Position numbers and translations under genes: made by a program
In this document: positions 8,391-46,814 of the stretch, in pieces
How the letters are laid out: every line of letters begins with the position of its first letter
Position numbering within the stretch: the stretch's first letter is position 1
Source: Schizosaccharomyces osmophilus
Lineage: Eukaryota > Ascomycota > Schizosaccharomycetes > Schizosaccharomycetales > Schizosaccharomycetaceae
Reading direction: 5' to 3'
DNA: 64,000 nt
NCBI RefSeq assembly: GCF_027921745.1
Contig: NC_079239.1
Span: 461,501 to 525,500 of the forward strand
Notes under the pieces: model-generated
What the model was told of the DNA's origin: nothing
What the model saw: the letters and a program-made list of their open reading frames with translations, nothing else
Database searches by the model: none

Positions 8391-8749
8391 GGTTGGCAAT
8401 GAAAAAGTTTCCAGAAGAACAAGAACAAGAAAAAACCAAACCAAACCAAGAAAGGAGAATGAAATCCAAGCAGTTCAATCAAGAAAAATCAATAAAGAGG
8501 ATTTCTTGGAACAAAAACTAAAAGCCCACAAGGGTGTGGGAGGATTGTTAGTGATGATGCTAATGAAGGAAGGAAAATCCCAATAAATAGACAACCCTCT
8601 CGAGTCCTTTGTTTACATACAAGCTTATAGGTAGACAGTGACAACACAAACAAAACAACAACAGAACAACAACAGAAGGGTCGGCTGAATCAATCAAAAA
8701 GAATTATAAGAAAAAGAAAAAGAAAGAAAAGCAAAAGTAATTTTTTTTT

Positions 8750-8751
<2 letters not shown>

Positions 8752-8779
<28 letters not shown>
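8752..8779. repeat. (TA)n microsatellite upstream of gld1
   Basis: About 28 bp of alternating TA lie some 360 bp upstream of the gld1 start. The run may act as a nucleosome-poor, TATA-like stretch. Confidence 0.9.
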
Positions 8780-8787
<8 letters not shown>

Positions 8788-9623
8788 AAACTTTTTGCTT
8801 CCTATTACTGGAAATGATACACGACAGCAACTAGATACTCTTCCTAGTAGCAGAAGAGGAGGACGAGTCCAAACAAAACAAGAAAACCCAAACAAATTTA
8901 TACAACAGCTACTATAGCTTTGAGCAACGAATGGGTGAATGTTCCAGAAATTCCAAACCTCGACTTGGGGTATACAAAACAAAAGCGAGAGAGTTAGAAC
9001 TGAAAACGATGGATGATGAGAAAAAACTGGAAAACAACCGCAACAAATATAGCGCTAGACAATATGATGACACAAGAATCCCTCTTTTCAAAACAACTAA
9101 AGTTCAACAAATGAAACCATATAGGTCCAAATTGAAATCTTAAAACATTCTTGAATCGTATGCTCCTACAACGTCATGGAGGAAAGACAAGAAATGGAGG
9201 TGGGCGAGACCAAGGAAATAAGCTTAAGGTTTGTTTGCGGAGTAAAGCAGGTGAAAAGTCTGACATAATACGTAGAACTCGTGCACCCTAATTTCGTTGA
9301 CATACCCCATCAATCCATTCGTCAAAGAAGCTTTATTTACTAAATGAGGAGACCACCGTATGGAGGAAAGAATCATGCGCTCATCATCGTTCTCCATCGG
9401 ATGTATCCGAACAGTAACTTAAAGTTTAAACTCAACTGTTCTCCATTGGGGAAAAAATGGGCGACAACCTTGTAGTTACTATTACTCACCTTCACTCGCG
9501 TCACCACTGCAAAGCGAAGCTGCGCTTTTGGAGTTGGTGTCGATCGTGGTGGTGTCGTATTGGTTTGTAGTGTTCTGCAATGTTTCCCGGTATTTCAGTG
9601 CTACGTAATCCACGACACTATGT

Positions 9624-39388: not shown

Positions 39389-40171
39389 TTAGGCATTCAA
39401 AGAACCATCCATGATTCGTCGTAAACTCATACAAATAGATTGACGCGCTTGTTCACTGTTTACCTTGTTTCCAACAAGGTACGATTGAAGAAACAGATTG
39501 GAAAGTTTCAGCCCTTCATCCTGCATGCTGCCAATCTCACGATCTTCGTGTTCAAATAGCAATTTTTCTTTATCCGTCAAGGTGATGGAGAGATTGGTGG
39601 ATCGAAGACAAGTTCCGGTTCCAGGGAATGTGTTTCGGAAGCTTTGAATCATACGCTCTTCACGTTCGTCATTGTGATTTTGGCGCAAAAGCATCGCTTT
39701 TGTAAATCCACCCTTTAAATGCTTAAAGTTGGTATTTCGTGCAGGCAAAATTCGAACTGCATATTGGATTTTCCGTTTTAAGAGTTCTTCAATGATACGG
39801 CTTCCGAGTTGAGCTTCCTTCAAGCTCATTTCCACTCCCATATTGTGGTCCACATGCTCATTCAGGACTTTCTGAATGGAACGAAAATCTTGTTTCCGAA
39901 CATAAAGCTCAACATCATAAACGTAAATCCCCAAAAATGAAACATACCTTGGTCCCGATCCAAGTAAAAACATGCTTTTACGGCTGTCATCCTTTGTTAA
40001 ATTGTATTCATCAGCAAGAGTTGCCAATTTTTCCACAAAGCTTTCACATTGTACTTTTTGAGTTTTCATTGCTGTTCCAACCGCAGCAATAGAAGTCAAG
40101 GCCATAACCGCTGGCCGCTTCCAAATCCAGTTTTGACAAAATTTAAACGAAAATGCATAAGGTCCAAACAT
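39389..40171 (-). CDS. Mitochondrial chalcone-isomerase-fold protein (Aim18/Aim46-like)
   Basis: 260 aa, one exon, starting at the ATG at 40171. The frame stays open upstream, but only with non-ATG codons. The N-terminus (MFGPYAFSFKFCQNWIWKRP) and a short hydrophobic stretch (AVMALTSIAAVGTA) suggest mitochondrial import and inner-membrane anchoring. The body carries the fungal CHI-domain landmarks: LLGSGPRYVSFLGIYVYDVE, the VRILPARNTNFKHLKGGFTK core and SLRRIMDGSL at the end. Fungal members are not chalcone isomerases in the plant sense. They lack a known flavonoid substrate, and the yeast relatives affect mitochondrial inheritance. The biochemical role is unknown. Confidence 0.85.
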   Translation of the reverse strand: MFGPYAFSFKFCQNWIWKRPAVMALTSIAAVGTAMKTQKVQCESFVEKLATLADEYNLTKDDSRKSMFLLGSGPRYVSFLGIYVYDVELYVRKQDFRSIQKVLNEHVDHNMGVEMSLKEAQLGSRIIEELLKRKIQYAVRILPARNTNFKHLKGGFTKAMLLRQNHNDEREERMIQSFRNTFPGTGTCLRSTNLSITLTDKEKLLFEHEDREIGSMQDEGLKLSNLFLQSYLVGNKVNSEQARQSICMSLRRIMDGSLNA

Positions 40172-41056
40172 TATGAAAGAATAACTACTAAATTCCCCGA
40201 TGGTTTGAGGTTCTAATTGGTTGGTCACTGCAGGGAACTAAAAGTAGATGATTTAGTCTCTACAGGTATGCCAGCTCTTTATAATTATATTCAAGTGGAC
40301 TGGATACTCATTACGTTTATTGTATCATCATATAGAAATACATGTTTTATTCAGATAAAACCAAAATAAACTAAAAAAAAAATAAAAAAAAAATTGAGAA
40401 ACAAGGAAGGAAAAAGATATTCATCAAACCGCTACACGGTCATGTACTCAATACCATCTCATATCGTTTCAGATGGCCCGATTTGTAAAGCTTCTAGGTT
40501 AAGATTAGCAAAACTTCTAAATAGTTGCTTGTTCGGCAAACGAACAATGGACAAATAGCATCGAAGAGTTTCCTCATGAGCCTTTTAAAGGGGTTTCTTC
40601 TGTCTCCTAACGGTCCATAGCTTTGACAAAGATTCAGTTAGATACTGTCAATTCAATGAATCGTTCTTCGATATTATATTTTCATAGTTAAATTCATAAA
40701 TTCAGTGCATTAGTATCCATGTCATAGCAAGCATTGCTATTTTCTTACGTCCATGACCTTTTCCTTTTCACACTCATGTTGCCATTTCTAGACACAGCGA
40801 CTTTTTCTCTGACAAGAGTCATCAATGTATTCGCACCAATAGCTAGTTGTTACTGAAGGAAACAGTTGGTTAGTCTTTTGGTAAATGATTGCATAGGAAA
40901 TAAAAAACCAACCAAGACTGCGGGAAAGTCAACGTAAAGGCAGTAGCTCCTTTATATATAGCTATAGTCATCATAAAAAAACTTTCGTATAAATTTTGTT
41001 TTCAATGAGAAGCAATATAATTCATTCTCTGTATTTTCAGGTTTTTGCCAATGTAA
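40172..41056. other. Region downstream of chp1, no further coding sequence
   Basis: 885 bp between the CHI-fold gene and the chp1 stop. I read both strands for continuation of Chp1. No frame longer than about 60 codons exists, and no donor/acceptor pair extends the chp1 frame. It holds an A-rich tract near 40370-40395. Confidence 0.65.
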
Positions 41057-42310
41057 TTATTCAGCAAGCGCATCTGTTTTAGGCATCTCTTGCCATACAT
41101 TATTGACAGTGGTCCACCTACTACCCGGAACTTTCAGGTCGTTCTTTGGCTTTCTAGGAGACGTACTCTTACTTTTCTGTAATTTGAAATTCGACTTCGA
41201 GCTTTCTTTAGACAGTCTTTTAGATGAGGATGCTTTGAAGTATTTTCTATTCTCCAAGGGATCTGATAGTGTACCGTAGACATCGTCCTTTGCCAGAGCA
41301 ATACGCCAAATTGGATGTCCTTTTCCATAAGCGATTTGAGCACAATCAGCTGAATCGAATTTGACATAAGCTACATCACTAGCTGAACTATGGCCTCTAT
41401 AAACCCGTACATCCAGCTTTGATGGGATAAAAGCAAAATACGAAACTATGTCTTTCTCAGCAGTACTTTTCGTAATATCGCTGATAATAATTGTATGCGA
41501 AGTCACAGAAGGATCCGCTTTCTTCATGCTTGATATCGAGGTGAACGTTGGTTTTTGTTCCAAAGAGTTAGGCCATAAGTAATCATTAACAGAAGCATTA
41601 AATGTATTTGCTCCTACGGATTTTTCATAAATGGTTCCTATAGAAGAAGTCAGAGTCGGAGATCCTATTGAGAAATCCCCAGAGTAAGGGTTATCGCCAT
41701 TGACTTCAGGAATCTTTATACAGGAAATTGAAGGAGAATCCGACAGGGATTCACTTTGACAAAATGAAGGGGTATCATCTCGATCAGCACATTTTTGTTT
41801 CTTTTCAGTGGATGACCAAATTGTAACTTGCTCATTACCTGACTCCGTACCAGATACTTGAGGACAGCATCTGCGTTTCGTAACCCTCTTTTGTGATACT
41901 GCTGTTTGAGGAGACTTCGGGCTCGTTTTGGATTTTGTTTTAGATTTTGCAGCAGGTTGCGTAAGAGGTTCATTAGCGTTCGAGTTAAAATCTGGGGAAT
42001 ATACTCCTCCCTTTTTCCTTTGTTCCCACTCTTTTTGTTGAATTTCTTCAAAGGTATAAGGTTGTAATAGGCCAGCTGCTATAAGGCCTTTTTTCTTTTG
42101 CCAGTCTTTTAGAGCCATAGAGGCACCAGTGAGATTTTCCTCTGGCTCCCAAGTATTATCGCGTGAATCGTAACCAACCCATTTAATGTAGTACTCATTT
42201 TTACCAGATATATTAACGCGATCTGCGAGAATGCGCTCAACTTCATACACGTCTAGCTGTACATTCCTTTTGCTTTTAGGACGCTTTGTGGATTTTTTGG
42301 AATTAGCCAT
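41057..42310 (-). CDS. chp1: Chp1-type chromodomain/RRM heterochromatin protein, short form
   Basis: 417 aa, one exon, from the ATG at 42310. The chromodomain at residues 21-72 ([20 protein letters not shown], then [20 protein letters not shown]) is closely similar to S. pombe Chp1. It keeps the aromatic cage (Tyr22, Trp44, Tyr47) for methylated H3K9. A low-complexity linker follows, then an RRM from residue 272 ([20 protein letters not shown]), also Chp1-like. The chain then ends after a basic Ser/Lys stretch with [16 protein letters not shown]. pombe Chp1 is about 960 aa, and its C-terminal half binds Tas3 and holds a PIN-like domain. That half is absent here. Position beside ypt3 supports orthology. 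A Chp1-derived paralogue is the alternative. Confidence 0.85.
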
Positions 42311-43884
42311 AGAAATAGAAAAGATGTAATAATCCTGATTAAAAATATTAAGTGATATAAAATAAATACGGAGACAAAAACGTTTGAATGAATTCAATGA
42401 TTATTCGTAAGGCATCCGGGATAAATGAGTGCAAATTTATTTTCAATAGAAACAAACTTGCTTTTATAAACGCGTCTTCATCGGCCTAATCCGATAGCTA
42501 GGGATTTTGTTAAGGATCTATGTCTTGGCACCAGGATTCGCTGAATGGGGTACCTAAAGAAAGCAGTGAGTGCTAAGGAGCACAAGGTAAAGTCGATATA
42601 TGATACTCATGAATACATGAGCGTTATTTGTTTCTTCTTTCGTAATAGAGAGAAATCTCTTTCAGGTCGGTGTTGTTGAAGGAATGAAAGTGACACAATG
42701 AATCGTATGTACTGATGCAGTAGTTCTTTTCAGTACCTTGGAATTGTCTTCTAAATATAGGAAACCCTTTTGAAATTACAATGACAAGACTTTTACTTCA
42801 GAAGAGTAGACTCATTTGATTCCATAGCTACCCTGGGACATCCATTTAGCTTTTGAACTGATCAAGAATACTGACTGTAAACAAGACTTGGTACCCGCCT
42901 TTTTTAAAATCATGATGCTGGGAGTTTATGAGTCATAGGAAAAAACCTTGTATGTGTGAAATTGGCAACTACTCGTCTTTTTTGTCTATCTGTTTGATAC
43001 AATCTTTTTGCACTATATGTAACTAATACCCTTTAAGGAAGTAGGCAGCAAAAGCACCGAGAGTACGTTGAGTTTCTTTTTTATTTATACTTCCTAACCA
43101 TAAGACTTTTGGCATAAACTTTTATCTTGAAATTCGGTTGCAAATGTTTGTTTTTCTGCATCTTATAGTTCATATTCTCTTTAATACGATGCCTTTTGTA
43201 TGATGGTTACCTGGTTGATGAATATCCTGTGTCAAAGGTAAAGCAAAACATGTAAAATGTATGTATTCCTCCACGTATGTAATCAAAAACTCTCAAACCA
43301 TTAAGCTCAAGTTAGAAACCCTTCGAAAATAAATTTGCAACGTGCTTTGAATGTATCAAAAAGTTGTTGAGCAAAAGTTTTGTTTTTATACAATCGAAAC
43401 AACAATCGCATCAAATTCATATTCCAGTTAGCTTTTATTCATATAAGCTTACATTTTACTTACAGTATAATTACAAAACCAACGATTTTTTTTTGTCTCC
43501 ATAGTACGCCTTGCCCATGAGAATTGTTTGTTTACTATGAGGATCTTCAAAAATAGTATAATACCCTATACTTCACTAAGTAACACTAACACACTATAAG
43601 GTATGCTTCACAAAAGTATTTAATGAGAACTAAAATCCTTTTTTAATTTTGGTTTTAAATTCGTTCCTATTCGCTATATGAACCAGCATAAAGGATTATT
43701 GTGGGTAACTGTCAATAATGGGTCCTTTAGGACTTGACTACAACAAACTACGATCTGCTAGAAACATTTACCGCTAATAAAGCGACGGAAACGAAGAGAA
43801 AAAAGGGTAGGTGAAGAAGAAAAGTTGAAGGGAAATTGGTTTGCTGACAATAGGAAAGTAGATACTGAGTGAAGAAAACGAACG
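42311..43884. other. 1.57-kb divergent region between chp1 and ypt3
   Basis: The region holds the upstream sequences of both genes. An ACGCGTC (MCB-like) site lies near 42479. I found no open frame with family features and no tRNA or snoRNA I could defend. A non-coding RNA cannot be excluded. Confidence 0.5.
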
Positions 43885-44693
43885 ATGTGCCAAGAAGACG
43901 AATATGATTACTTGTTCAAAACTGTATTGATTGGTGACAGTGGAGTCGGTAAATCGAATCTTTTAATGCGTTTCACAAGAAATGAGTTTAATATCGAAAG
44001 CAAGAGTACCATTGGTGTGGAATTTGCTACTAGAAACATCGTATTAGACAACAAGAAAATCAAAGCCCAAATCTGGGATACAGCCGGTCAAGAACGCTAC
44101 CGTGCAATTACGTCTGCATATTATCGTGGTGCCGTTGGTGCTCTCATTGTTTATGATATTACCAAGCAATCATCCTTTGATAACGTTGGCCGCTGGCTAA
44201 AGGAATTGCGTGAGCATGCTGACAGCAACATTGTTATTATGCTTGTTGGAAACAAAACAGATTTGCTCCATTTGCGTGCTGTTTCCACTGAAGAGGCTCA
44301 AACCTTTGCGGGTATGTATTCATTCAATTTCCAATTAGCGTCGTCAGCCCCGACGAACCGAAACTAGTTGGGCTACCACTGTTTCATTGTTTTTCTTTTT
44401 TTCGTTTACTAATTTGTTAATAGCTGAAAACAATTTGTCATTTATAGAGACTTCCGCCATGGATGCCAGCAACGTAGAAGAAGCTTTTCAAACTGTCTTG
44501 ACTGGTATGGGAATGATTGTAATCTTTTTCTTATTCAATACTAACATTGATTTTAGAAATCTTCAGAATTGTTTCGAATAGATCTCTCGAAAGTGGTGAT
44601 GAAGGTGTTCATCCCATGGGTGGTCAAACTCTTAGTATCACTCCTACTATGAACGATACGAACAAGAAGAAATCTTCTTCTCAATGCTGTTAA
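43885..44693 (+). CDS. ypt3: Rab11-family GTPase Ypt3
   Basis: Three exons: 43885-44311, 44424-44504 and 44557-44693 (645 nt, 214 aa), with both junctions in phase 1. GTPase motifs are [11 protein letters not shown] (P-loop), TIGVEF (switch I), [10 protein letters not shown] (switch II), GNKTDL and ETSAMD, the last coming from exon 2. Exon 3 gives [20 protein letters not shown] and the C-terminal SSSQCC geranylgeranylation signal. The protein is nearly identical to S. pombe Ypt3 over most of its length. It drives trans-Golgi/endosome traffic, secretion to growing tips and septation. Without splicing, the protein would lose the guanine-base-binding ETSAM motif and the lipid anchor. Confidence 0.98.
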
Positions 44694-45218: not shown

Positions 45219-46814
45219 TTAAATAGGAAAGTCAAACTTGCTAGCCCATTGACGAACTTGTTCTTTCAACTTGAATATTTCTGGATTTTGACTTCCGTCA
45301 CCAACATAGCTTTTAAATTCTTTGAGTTTGGTCTTACCATTATCCTTAGCTTGTTTGTTCAACTTGACAGTTAGGTGAACAACTTCGTCAATAAGGTCAA
45401 CAATTCTTACAAAATCTTGTTCATTAAAGCCCCGTGTAGTACAAGCTGGAGTACCTATACGCAAACCATGGGGAATAAGTGCAGACTTGTCTCCAGGAAC
45501 AGTGTTCTTATTAGCTGAGATATTGATCAACTCCAAAACACGCTCAACCCTAGCTCCGTCGATATCTTTGTTGGTCAAATCGACAAGAACTAAATGGGTT
45601 TCTGTACCACCGGAAACCAATTTGTAGCCTTTTTTGATAAATGCATCTGCCATTGCTTTAGCATTCTTGACAACATTCTTTTGATATTCAATAAACTCAG
45701 GAGTTTTTGCTTGACCTAAGGCTACAGCCAAAGCGGTAATTGTGTGATTATGAGGACCACCCTGGTGACCAGGAAAGACTGAAAAATTAATTTTGTCTTC
45801 CAATTCATAATAAACAGGGTTGCCTTTCTTGTCGTGTTTGCAAAGACCACGACGGAAGAAAATCATAGCTCCTCGAGGTCCACGAAGAGACTTATGGGTT
45901 GTGGTAGTAACAATATCGGCATATTCAAACGGAGAAGGAATGACACCGGCGGCAACAAGACCAGATATATGAGCCATATCACAAAGCAAATAAGCATTAC
46001 ACTCATCGGCAATTTCACGCATGCGTTTATAATCAATTAAACGTGAATACGCACTTGCACCTGCAACAATCACCTTGGGACGGAACTGCTTAGCAGATCT
46101 GCTCAAGCCGTCATAATCAATAATACCAGTTTCGGGATTCACACCATACGGCATAGTACAGAAATATGTGGAGACTGCGGAAATTGATTTCTGAGGTGTA
46201 GCAAATCCATGAGATAAGTGCCCTCCATGAGGCAAATCCAAACCCATCAAACGATCATGGGGTTTCATAACAGCTTGATAAGCTTGAAGGTTAGCAGGCG
46301 AACCTGAATGAGGTTGTACATTAACACCCCATAATTCCGGATTTAAATGAAAAGCTTCAAGGGCACGCTTTTGACATAAAGACTCGGCCTGATCGATAAT
46401 TTCATTACCTCCATAATATCTGGCTCCTGGGTAACCTTCACTATACTTATTTTGCATCACACTACCAAGGACGTCCATAACGGCCTTGGAAGTAAAGTTT
46501 TCACTGGCAATTAAACCTATCGACTCCTTTTGTCGTTTCTCTTCAAATTTTAAGATTTTGCCAACCTCAGGGTCATATTGAAAAACCGAAGATTGAAGAA
46601 GCTATTCTTGTTAGTAATTAGTTTTGCAGTATCGCCATGTGCTTTCGAAGCTGGGGTTGAAAGACAATTTTTTCACTAAAAATATCAAAGACTGCCAGAC
46701 AGTCAATTATTTGAACAATTTGCATACCTTTTTTTGCTCGCTTGGTAAAGCGTAAAAACGCTTGAAAACCAAACTGATTCCTGTTCTTCTAGGAATCTGT
46801 CGTGTCAATGCCAT
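45219..46814 (-). CDS. shm2: Mitochondrial serine hydroxymethyltransferase Shm2
   Basis: Two exons: 46814-46728 and 46601-45219 (1470 nt, 489 aa), joined in phase 0. Exon 1 encodes only a 29-residue presequence ([20 protein letters not shown] and following) rich in Arg and lacking acidic residues until its end, so this is the mitochondrial isozyme. Exon 2 carries the fold-type-I PLP enzyme: [33 protein letters not shown], the PLP-lysine motif [14 protein letters not shown], and [13 protein letters not shown]. It converts serine and tetrahydrofolate to glycine and 5,10-methylene-tetrahydrofolate, feeding mitochondrial one-carbon metabolism. It lies in tandem with gcn1 (570 bp). Confidence 0.97.

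What the first reader, a model, noticed from the sequence alone, without database searches (positions are those of the whole stretch)
41057..42310. Syntenic Chp1 orthologue ends after the RRM and lacks the Tas3-binding C-terminal half
Seen: a 417-aa protein with a chromodomain and RRM both strongly like S. pombe Chp1, next to ypt3 as in S. pombe, with a clean stop and no further coding frame in the 885 bp downstream. Known: S. pombe Chp1 is about 960 aa. Its C-terminal half binds Tas3 and has a PIN-like domain, joining Chp1 to Ago1 in RITS and to telomeres. Inference: either RITS is wired differently here (Tas3 contacts another surface, or the missing half is a separate gene), or this Chp1 works without RITS as a plain H3K9me reader.
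Basis: partly seen in the sequence, partly recalled or inferred. Interest (0 to 1): 0.75.

Follow-up and report, generated by a model that had tools for sequence, protein, structure and literature searches.

The report
Shortened fission-yeast Chp1 lacking RITS platform
This fission yeast keeps only the histone-reading and RNA-binding front half of the silencing protein Chp1; the back half that docks it into the RNA-interference complex is gone, an inherited loss shared with its sister species that is, as I recall, already described for two of them.

Summary
Window 41057-42310 (-) encodes a 417-aa Chp1 orthologue with a chromodomain and an RRM that stops before the SPOC-DomII-PIN half. S. octosporus (400 aa) and S. 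cryophilus (462 aa) Chp1 records are equally short; S. pombe (961) and S. japonicus (1078) are long, pointing to one loss in the short clade's ancestor. Two of three contig lengths identify S. osmophilus. Full-length S. pombe and S. japonicus queries hit only the front half and other chromodomain genes; Pfam SPOC and PIN find nothing. tas3 is missing from its expected apc15-rpl43 interval; Ago1, Dcr1, Rdp1, Stc1, Clr4-like and Swi6-like genes are present. The short protein keeps aromatic-cage residues, the RRM and a motif, GSxWTx[VI]N, shortly before its stop; all three short forms have lost N35, W49 and the basic post-chromodomain stretch. Best reading: a Chp1 uncoupled from RITS, an H3K9me reader with an RRM, kept by selection. 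The truncation and Tas3 loss are, from recall, published for S. octosporus and S. cryophilus (Upadhyay 2017, not held). Apparently new: the S. osmophilus case, the motif, the coordinated erosion.

The parts
41057..42310 (-). short chp1, complete ORF of 417 aa including stop codon
   Evidence: orthologues P0002 and P0003
42086..42253 (-). chromodomain (residues 20-75); Y22, W44, Y47 kept (their role as aromatic cage is recalled); N35 and W49 of S. pombe are S and S here
   Evidence: loop residues from PMC4849473 passage
41291..41494 (-). RRM (residues 273-340)
41093..41125 (-). conserved tail motif [11 protein letters not shown] (residues 396-406), ending 11 residues before the stop; G396, S397, W399, T400 and N403 are identical in all five Chp1 proteins compared, W406 in 4 of 5
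40229..41056 (.). downstream gap where the SPOC-DomII-PIN half would follow; no coding remnant detected
39389..40228 (-). downstream neighbour, chalcone-isomerase-like protein (synteny marker)
43885..44367 (+). ORF with the main part of a Ras-family GTPase gene at the ypt3 position (synteny marker)
45219..46478 (-). serine hydroxymethyltransferase gene (synteny marker, shm2 position recalled)

Best explanation
Shown: this is the orthologue of Chp1, lacking the SPOC-DomII-PIN half as do the S. octosporus and S. cryophilus proteins, with tas3 also gone from its expected place; the remaining protein is intact and conserved. [quoted passage not shown] Inferred: the protein is no longer part of a Chp1-Tas3-Ago1 RITS complex. 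It works as an H3K9-methyl reader carrying an RRM and a short disordered peptide motif, bringing an RNA or a partner protein to already methylated chromatin, while Ago1 and Stc1 with the Clr4 complex carry the small-RNA-guided step without a Chp1 tether.
For: Three of three clade members seen are short (400, 417, 462 aa) and two of two outgroups long (961, 1078 aa), so the loss falls between the splits dated about 108 and 29 million years ago in PMC10085805 (passages). The C-half was not found in the genome: full-length S. japonicus and S. pombe queries return at this locus only residues 9-406 and 17-477, plus other chromodomain genes; Pfam PIN and SPOC 0 matches. tas3 interval: apc15 (Pfam Apc15p, 31.7 bits) and rpl43 are 858 bp apart, with no plus-strand frame over 50 aa in 8600-9420 of L023. 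RNAi and heterochromatin genes present: Piwi, RdRP, Dicer, Stc1, chromodomain-SET, chromodomain with chromoshadow. Constraint after truncation: invariant in the three short proteins are 48/56 chromodomain, 48/68 RRM and 12/20 tail residues, against 38/160 and 16/50 in the two linkers. RITS-linked chromatin contacts eroded together: N35 and W49 lost in 3/3 short and kept in 2/2 long; net charge of the stretch aligned to S. pombe 56-140 is +18 and +8 in the long forms, 0, -4 and -1 in the short ones. In S. pombe, a Tas3 mutant that separates Ago1 from Chp1 and Tas3 still permits maintenance of heterochromatin (PMC2965749 abstract).
Against: I saw no functional data from this species. By recall, Upadhyay 2017 found that truncated Chp1 failed to localise to heterochromatin and to silence in S. 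pombe, which could mean it is weak or defective rather than rewired. Absence of Tas3 was shown only at the expected place; no Tas3 sequence was available to query the genome, and the S. pombe order used is recalled. N35 and W49 are single substitutions; S. japonicus also differs from S. pombe at R31 and N33, which the short forms keep; its chromodomain helix (S. pombe 56-78) has the same net +1 as the short forms. The charge comparison beyond residue 78 rests on an alignment with many gaps. The short lengths in the sister species are those of database records; their DNA was not inspected.
Confidence: 0.62

Rival explanations
1. Relaxed selection: the short Chp1 is a relic on its way out, made redundant by Cbp1-family (CENP-B-like) silencing, as I recall Upadhyay 2017 proposing.
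For: Loss of half the protein and of tas3 from its place, loss of core-contact residues and positive charge. S. octosporus, S. cryophilus and S. osmophilus each have six Cbp1-family genes (PMC10085805 passage). Recalled: truncated Chp1 does not work in S. pombe.
Against: Chromodomain, RRM and tail motif remain strongly conserved between species that split about 29 million years ago (48/56, 48/68 and 12/20 invariant residues; date), with full-length records in three of three. A decaying gene would not keep two domains and a motif selectively.
Confidence: 0.2
2. Two-part RITS: the retained front half still joins Ago1 directly, through the tryptophan-containing tail (GSxWTTVNNxW in this species) acting like an Argonaute hook, so Tas3 and the C-half became dispensable.
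For: The tail has two tryptophans seven residues apart with small polar neighbours, is predicted disordered (blocks 391-417 pLDDT 36-38), and is the densest run of residues identical in all five proteins outside the two domains (5 of 8; permutation p about 0.0001 over 237 linker and tail residues); the stop falls just after it. S. octosporus has a literal GW there. Ago1 is retained.
Against: The motif is also in S. pombe and, without the second tryptophan, in S. japonicus, so it does not specifically replace Tas3. Tryptophans in TNRC6 Argonaute-binding sites are ten or more residues apart (PMC9262622 passage). Of the four pocket residues mutated in worm ALG-1 (PMC5147811 passage; the human equivalents P590, F659, K660, E695 are recalled) only P590 is identical in this Ago1, and of the pocket-3 residues C691 and P700 only P700, by my reading of the alignment; S. 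pombe Ago1 was not available for comparison.
Confidence: 0.12
3. The C-half persists elsewhere, as a separate gene too diverged, too intron-rich or in unassembled sequence.
For: Searches are by sequence, frame by frame without introns; the two rDNA-distal contigs described in PMC10085805 are not among the three contigs searched.
Against: S. pombe and S. japonicus C-halves are 37% identical and score 379 bits, so a clade member should be found; none in this genome nor among the database proteins scored.
Confidence: 0.04

Closest known systems
S. octosporus and S. cryophilus short Chp1 (P0003, P0002; named chromodomain protein Chp1 in NCBI)
   Same: Same architecture, 400 and 462 aa, 65% and 62% identity, end within 11-15 residues after the tail motif
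   Different: Species-level sequence differences; S. cryophilus keeps longer linkers and a different last stretch
S. pombe Chp1 (P0017), RITS subunit
   Same: Chromodomain, RRM, tail motif GSSWTTVNNDW; recalled synteny with ypt3
   Different: Has SPOC, DomII and PIN domains (PDB 3tix), N35 and W49, a basic post-chromodomain stretch, and Tas3 as partner
S. japonicus Chp1 (P0015)
   Same: Chromodomain, RRM, GSSWTAVN motif
   Different: Long, with SPOC, DomII and PIN; chp1 deletion mutants could not be recovered in S. japonicus (PMC8912903 passage)
Human HUSH complex (MPP8 and TASOR)
   Same: There too the chromodomain (MPP8) and the SPOC, DomII and PIN modules (TASOR) are on different proteins (PMC7532188 passages)
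   Different: In HUSH both proteins exist and interact; here no second half was found

Membership tests
Chp1 orthologue | N-terminal Chp1-type chromodomain with aromatic cage | tested here: met
   Top PDB hits are Chp1 chromodomain chains; Y22, W44, Y47 identical in all five (cage role recalled)
Chp1 orthologue | Central RRM followed by the GSxWTx[VI]N motif | tested here: met
   Pfam RRM_1 score slightly under cut-off
Chp1 orthologue | Chromosomal position next to ypt3 | tested here: met
   Neighbouring families; the S. pombe gene order itself is recalled
RITS-type Chp1 (Tas3-binding) | SPOC-DomII-PIN C-terminal platform | tested here: not met
   Absent from the protein and not found in window or genome; DomII model not searched in the genome
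RITS complex | Tas3 present | tested here: inconclusive
   Absent from the expected apc15-rpl43 interval; whole genome not searchable without a Tas3 sequence
RITS complex | Argonaute Ago1 present | tested here: met
   Piwi 341 bits, single locus; PAZ, Mid, L1, L2, N domains
RITS complex | Physical association of Chp1 with Ago1 | not testable with these tools
   needs co-purification
HUSH-like split architecture | SPOC-DomII-PIN carried by a second protein | tested here: not met
   none found

The most novel reading that the evidence does not exclude
The Chp1 front half has become a self-sufficient silencing adaptor: in a clade with Argonaute, Dicer and RdRP genes but without the RITS scaffold, the conserved tryptophan peptide at its very C-terminus is an unrecognised docking motif, present also in S. 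pombe Chp1, that binds Ago1, Stc1 or the Clr4 complex directly and so replaces the Tas3 bridge.
Probability: 0.15. Interest if true: 0.75.

Novelty: new member of a known kind. Interest (0 to 1): 0.42.

Why it matters
RITS is the textbook link between small RNAs and heterochromatin, yet a clade tens of millions of years old keeps the RNAi genes (shown here for one species) and a conserved Chp1 front half without the RITS scaffold. S. octosporus and S. cryophilus have H3K9me2 heterochromatin at outer centromere repeats (PMC6538654 passages). Finding out what the short Chp1 still does would separate what Chp1 does by itself from what it does as a RITS subunit, and the retained motif gives a small peptide that can be tested in S. 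pombe too.

Tried and rejected
Second full-length chp1: the nine chromodomain matches in the genome are this gene (1), two genes with paired chromodomains in frames of 1321 and 1385 aa (4; CHD type by recall), one chromodomain-SET protein (1), one ABC protein (1; EF3 by recall), one with a chromoshadow domain (1; Swi6-like) and one weak unresolved match (1). None resolved is a second Chp1.

Remnants of the C-half: tblastn with S. pombe and S. japonicus C-halves against 40229-41056 and 42311-43884 gives E 0.56 or worse. Hidden exon: the gap has no frame longer than chance. Consensus 5' splice sites exist before and after the stop, but no coding sequence was found beyond to splice to.

Tas3 by PDB sequence: the apc15-rpl43 interval, read in one plus-strand frame only, has no credible hit (best E 0.61, a carotenoid dioxygenase). 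Tail packing on another domain: the S. osmophilus tail is predicted disordered; the S. pombe model is poor overall (mean pLDDT 42) and decides nothing. Ago1 tryptophan pockets: inconclusive, leaning against. Rfam scan of the window: 0 matches. A first Pfam scan of the Stc1 locus in a guessed frame gave 0 families; in the frame of the match it gives Stc1, 62.4 bits.

Literature: eight searches. The key paper (Upadhyay et al. 2017, Mol Biol Cell 28:1132) was seen only as a reference entry; its content is recalled. I take PMC3131103 to be Rhind 2011; it was not held. In the S. osmophilus genome paper 'chp1' and 'tas3' occur 0 times in the main text; its supplements were not read. Passages of PMC11662645 and PMC4121317 say nothing on Chp1 length in other species. 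From the other papers I saw passages only, except PMC2965749, of which I saw the abstract and outline.

Full report
Identity of the genome. The two largest contigs of the genome are 5,565,604 and 3,504,162 bases, exactly the chromosome 1 and 2 lengths given for S. osmophilus CBS 15793 in PMC10085805 (passage); the third is 2,342,500 against 2,346,755 in the paper. The window lies on chromosome 2 at 461501-525500.

The gene. The ORF at 41057-42310 on the minus strand encodes 417 residues. Pfam finds a chromodomain (58.9 bits) and an RRM just below its cut-off (19.5 against 20.7 bits). AlphaFold2 with five sequences gives a confident RRM fold at 273-339, a poorly modelled chromodomain and a disordered tail (mean pLDDT 46 overall). 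Foldseek's best matches are RNA-binding domains, with the S. pombe Chp1 chromodomain at rank 25. Neighbours are a chalcone-isomerase-like gene, a Ras-family GTPase and serine hydroxymethyltransferase, which matches the S. pombe chp1 neighbourhood as I recall it.

Orthologues. A search of 5.8 billion proteins with the 417-aa protein returned 14 proteins including itself; the only ones aligned over the whole query were S. cryophilus Chp1 (462 aa) and S. octosporus Chp1 (400 aa). S. japonicus Chp1 is 1078 aa and S. pombe Chp1 961 aa. Pfam shows Chp1-like SPOC, Chp1 domain II and Chp1-like PIN in the S. japonicus and S. pombe proteins and none of these in the S. cryophilus and S. octosporus ones. 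With the dates in PMC10085805 (passages: S. japonicus-S. pombe split 207, S. pombe-S. octosporus 108, S. octosporus-S. cryophilus 29, S. osmophilus-S. octosporus about 16 million years ago), the simplest history is a single loss in the ancestor of the three short-form species.

No C-half found elsewhere. Full-length S. japonicus Chp1 against the genome at E up to 1 gave 3 matches: residues 9-138 and 318-406 at this locus and the chromodomain-SET gene. Full-length S. pombe Chp1 at E up to 10 gave 4 matches: residues 17-133 and 291-477 here, the chromodomain-SET and the chromoshadow genes. The front-half matches are the positive control. The S. pombe C-half alone and Pfam PIN and SPOC gave 0; those three have no control of their own, as the tool itself warns. 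The protein database search with the S. japonicus C-half gave 1 protein, S. pombe Chp1; only the 7,996 candidates sharing most words were scored. Pfam domain II was not searched against the genome.

Tas3 and the RNAi core. Around one of the two rpl43 copies the order is an EH-domain gene, rpl43, apc15, an RNA12 gene and a mitochondrial-type L36 gene, which matches the S. pombe SPBC83.01 to .06c order as I recall it, with tas3 (SPBC83.03c) expected between rpl43 and apc15. That gap is 858 bp (8527-9384 of L023; the first apc15 exon, 8437-8526, was assigned by eye), and plus-strand frames in 8600-9420 are at most 50 aa, too short for Tas3 (about 549 aa, recalled) unless it has many small exons. 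The other rpl43 copy has a tubulin gene and no tas3-sized unknown frame beside it (tubulin recognised by eye). Ago1, Rdp1, Dicer, Stc1, a chromodomain-SET protein like Clr4 and a chromodomain-chromoshadow protein like Swi6 are present.

What the short protein kept. In the five-protein alignment, of 66 residues identical in all five, 31 of 56 lie in the chromodomain, 18 of 68 in the RRM and 6 of 20 in the tail 391-410; the rest are 1 of 19 at the N-terminus, 3 of 15 just after the chromodomain, 4 of 22 just before the RRM, 3 of 160 and 0 of 50 in the two linkers and 0 of 7 at the end. The tail reads [11 protein letters not shown] here, [11 protein letters not shown] in S. octosporus, GSRWTTINNIW in S. 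cryophilus, GSSWTTVNNDW in S. pombe and GSSWTAVNSSQ in S. japonicus. Among the 237 linker and tail residues the best window of eight holds 5 of the 9 invariant ones (permutation p about 0.0001; this ignores alignment uncertainty and relatedness). The three short proteins end 11, 11 and 15 residues after the second tryptophan, at similar but not identical places, as expected of an old stop codon. I found no description of this motif in the passages seen, but did not search for it specifically.

What it lost besides the C-half. S. pombe chromodomain residues mutated to test nucleosome-core binding are R31, N33, N35, W49, Y50, D51 and N52 (PMC4849473 passage). N35 and W49 are changed in 3/3 short and kept in 2/2 long proteins; Y50 is changed in 2/3 short and kept in both long; D51 and N52 are kept in all five; R31 and N33 are kept in all short proteins but changed in S. 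japonicus. The stretch aligned to S. pombe 79-140 is shorter (32, 32 and 42 against 62 and 56 residues) and its net charge falls from +12 and +7 to -1, -5 and -2. In S. pombe the positively charged chromodomain helix was proposed to tether nascent RNA (PMC4849473 passage); that helix itself is net +6 in S. pombe but +1 in S. japonicus and in the short forms. So chromatin- and RNA-tethering features seem to have eroded together with the Tas3 platform, while the methyl-lysine cage residues and the RRM stayed.

Mechanism. I favour a Chp1 uncoupled from Ago1 that still reads H3K9me and holds an RNA or a partner through the RRM and the tail. Support from S. [quoted passage not shown] Against easy function: as recalled, the truncated protein did not localise or silence in S. 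pombe in Upadhyay 2017. Both are compatible with a protein adapted to its own clade, but only tests in that clade can decide.

Novelty. I could not open that paper; it is in the reference lists of PMC10085805, PMC8912903 and PMC8954937. The S. osmophilus case, the retained C-terminal motif and the correlated chromodomain changes were not seen in the listings and passages reached from my eight searches; they may be in papers or supplements that are not held.

Noticed in passing
window 41093-41125 and P0017 residues 458-468: A tryptophan-containing motif between RRM and SPOC (five residues identical in all five Chp1 proteins, second tryptophan in four) in otherwise unconserved disordered sequence; no function known to me.
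   Followed up: partly
window 42086-42253 (chromodomain): N35 and W49, nucleosome-core loop residues in S. pombe Chp1, are replaced in all three short Chp1 proteins.
   Followed up: partly
G000 C1, L023 8527-9384: Interval between apc15 and rpl43, where S. pombe (recalled) has tas3, holds no gene-sized frame.
   Followed up: yes
G000 C2:365535-368690 (L005): An ABC protein (EF3-like by recall) carries a chromodomain match (44.8 bits), so chromodomain counts in this genome overstate histone readers.
   Followed up: partly
G000 C1:868752-868841: A weak chromodomain match (30.8 bits) in a 44-aa open frame with a stop, possibly an exon of a Chp2-like gene; not resolved.
   Followed up: no
window 42311-43884: A 1.57-kb intergenic stretch between divergent chp1 and the ypt3-position gene without Rfam match or C-half remnant.
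   Followed up: partly
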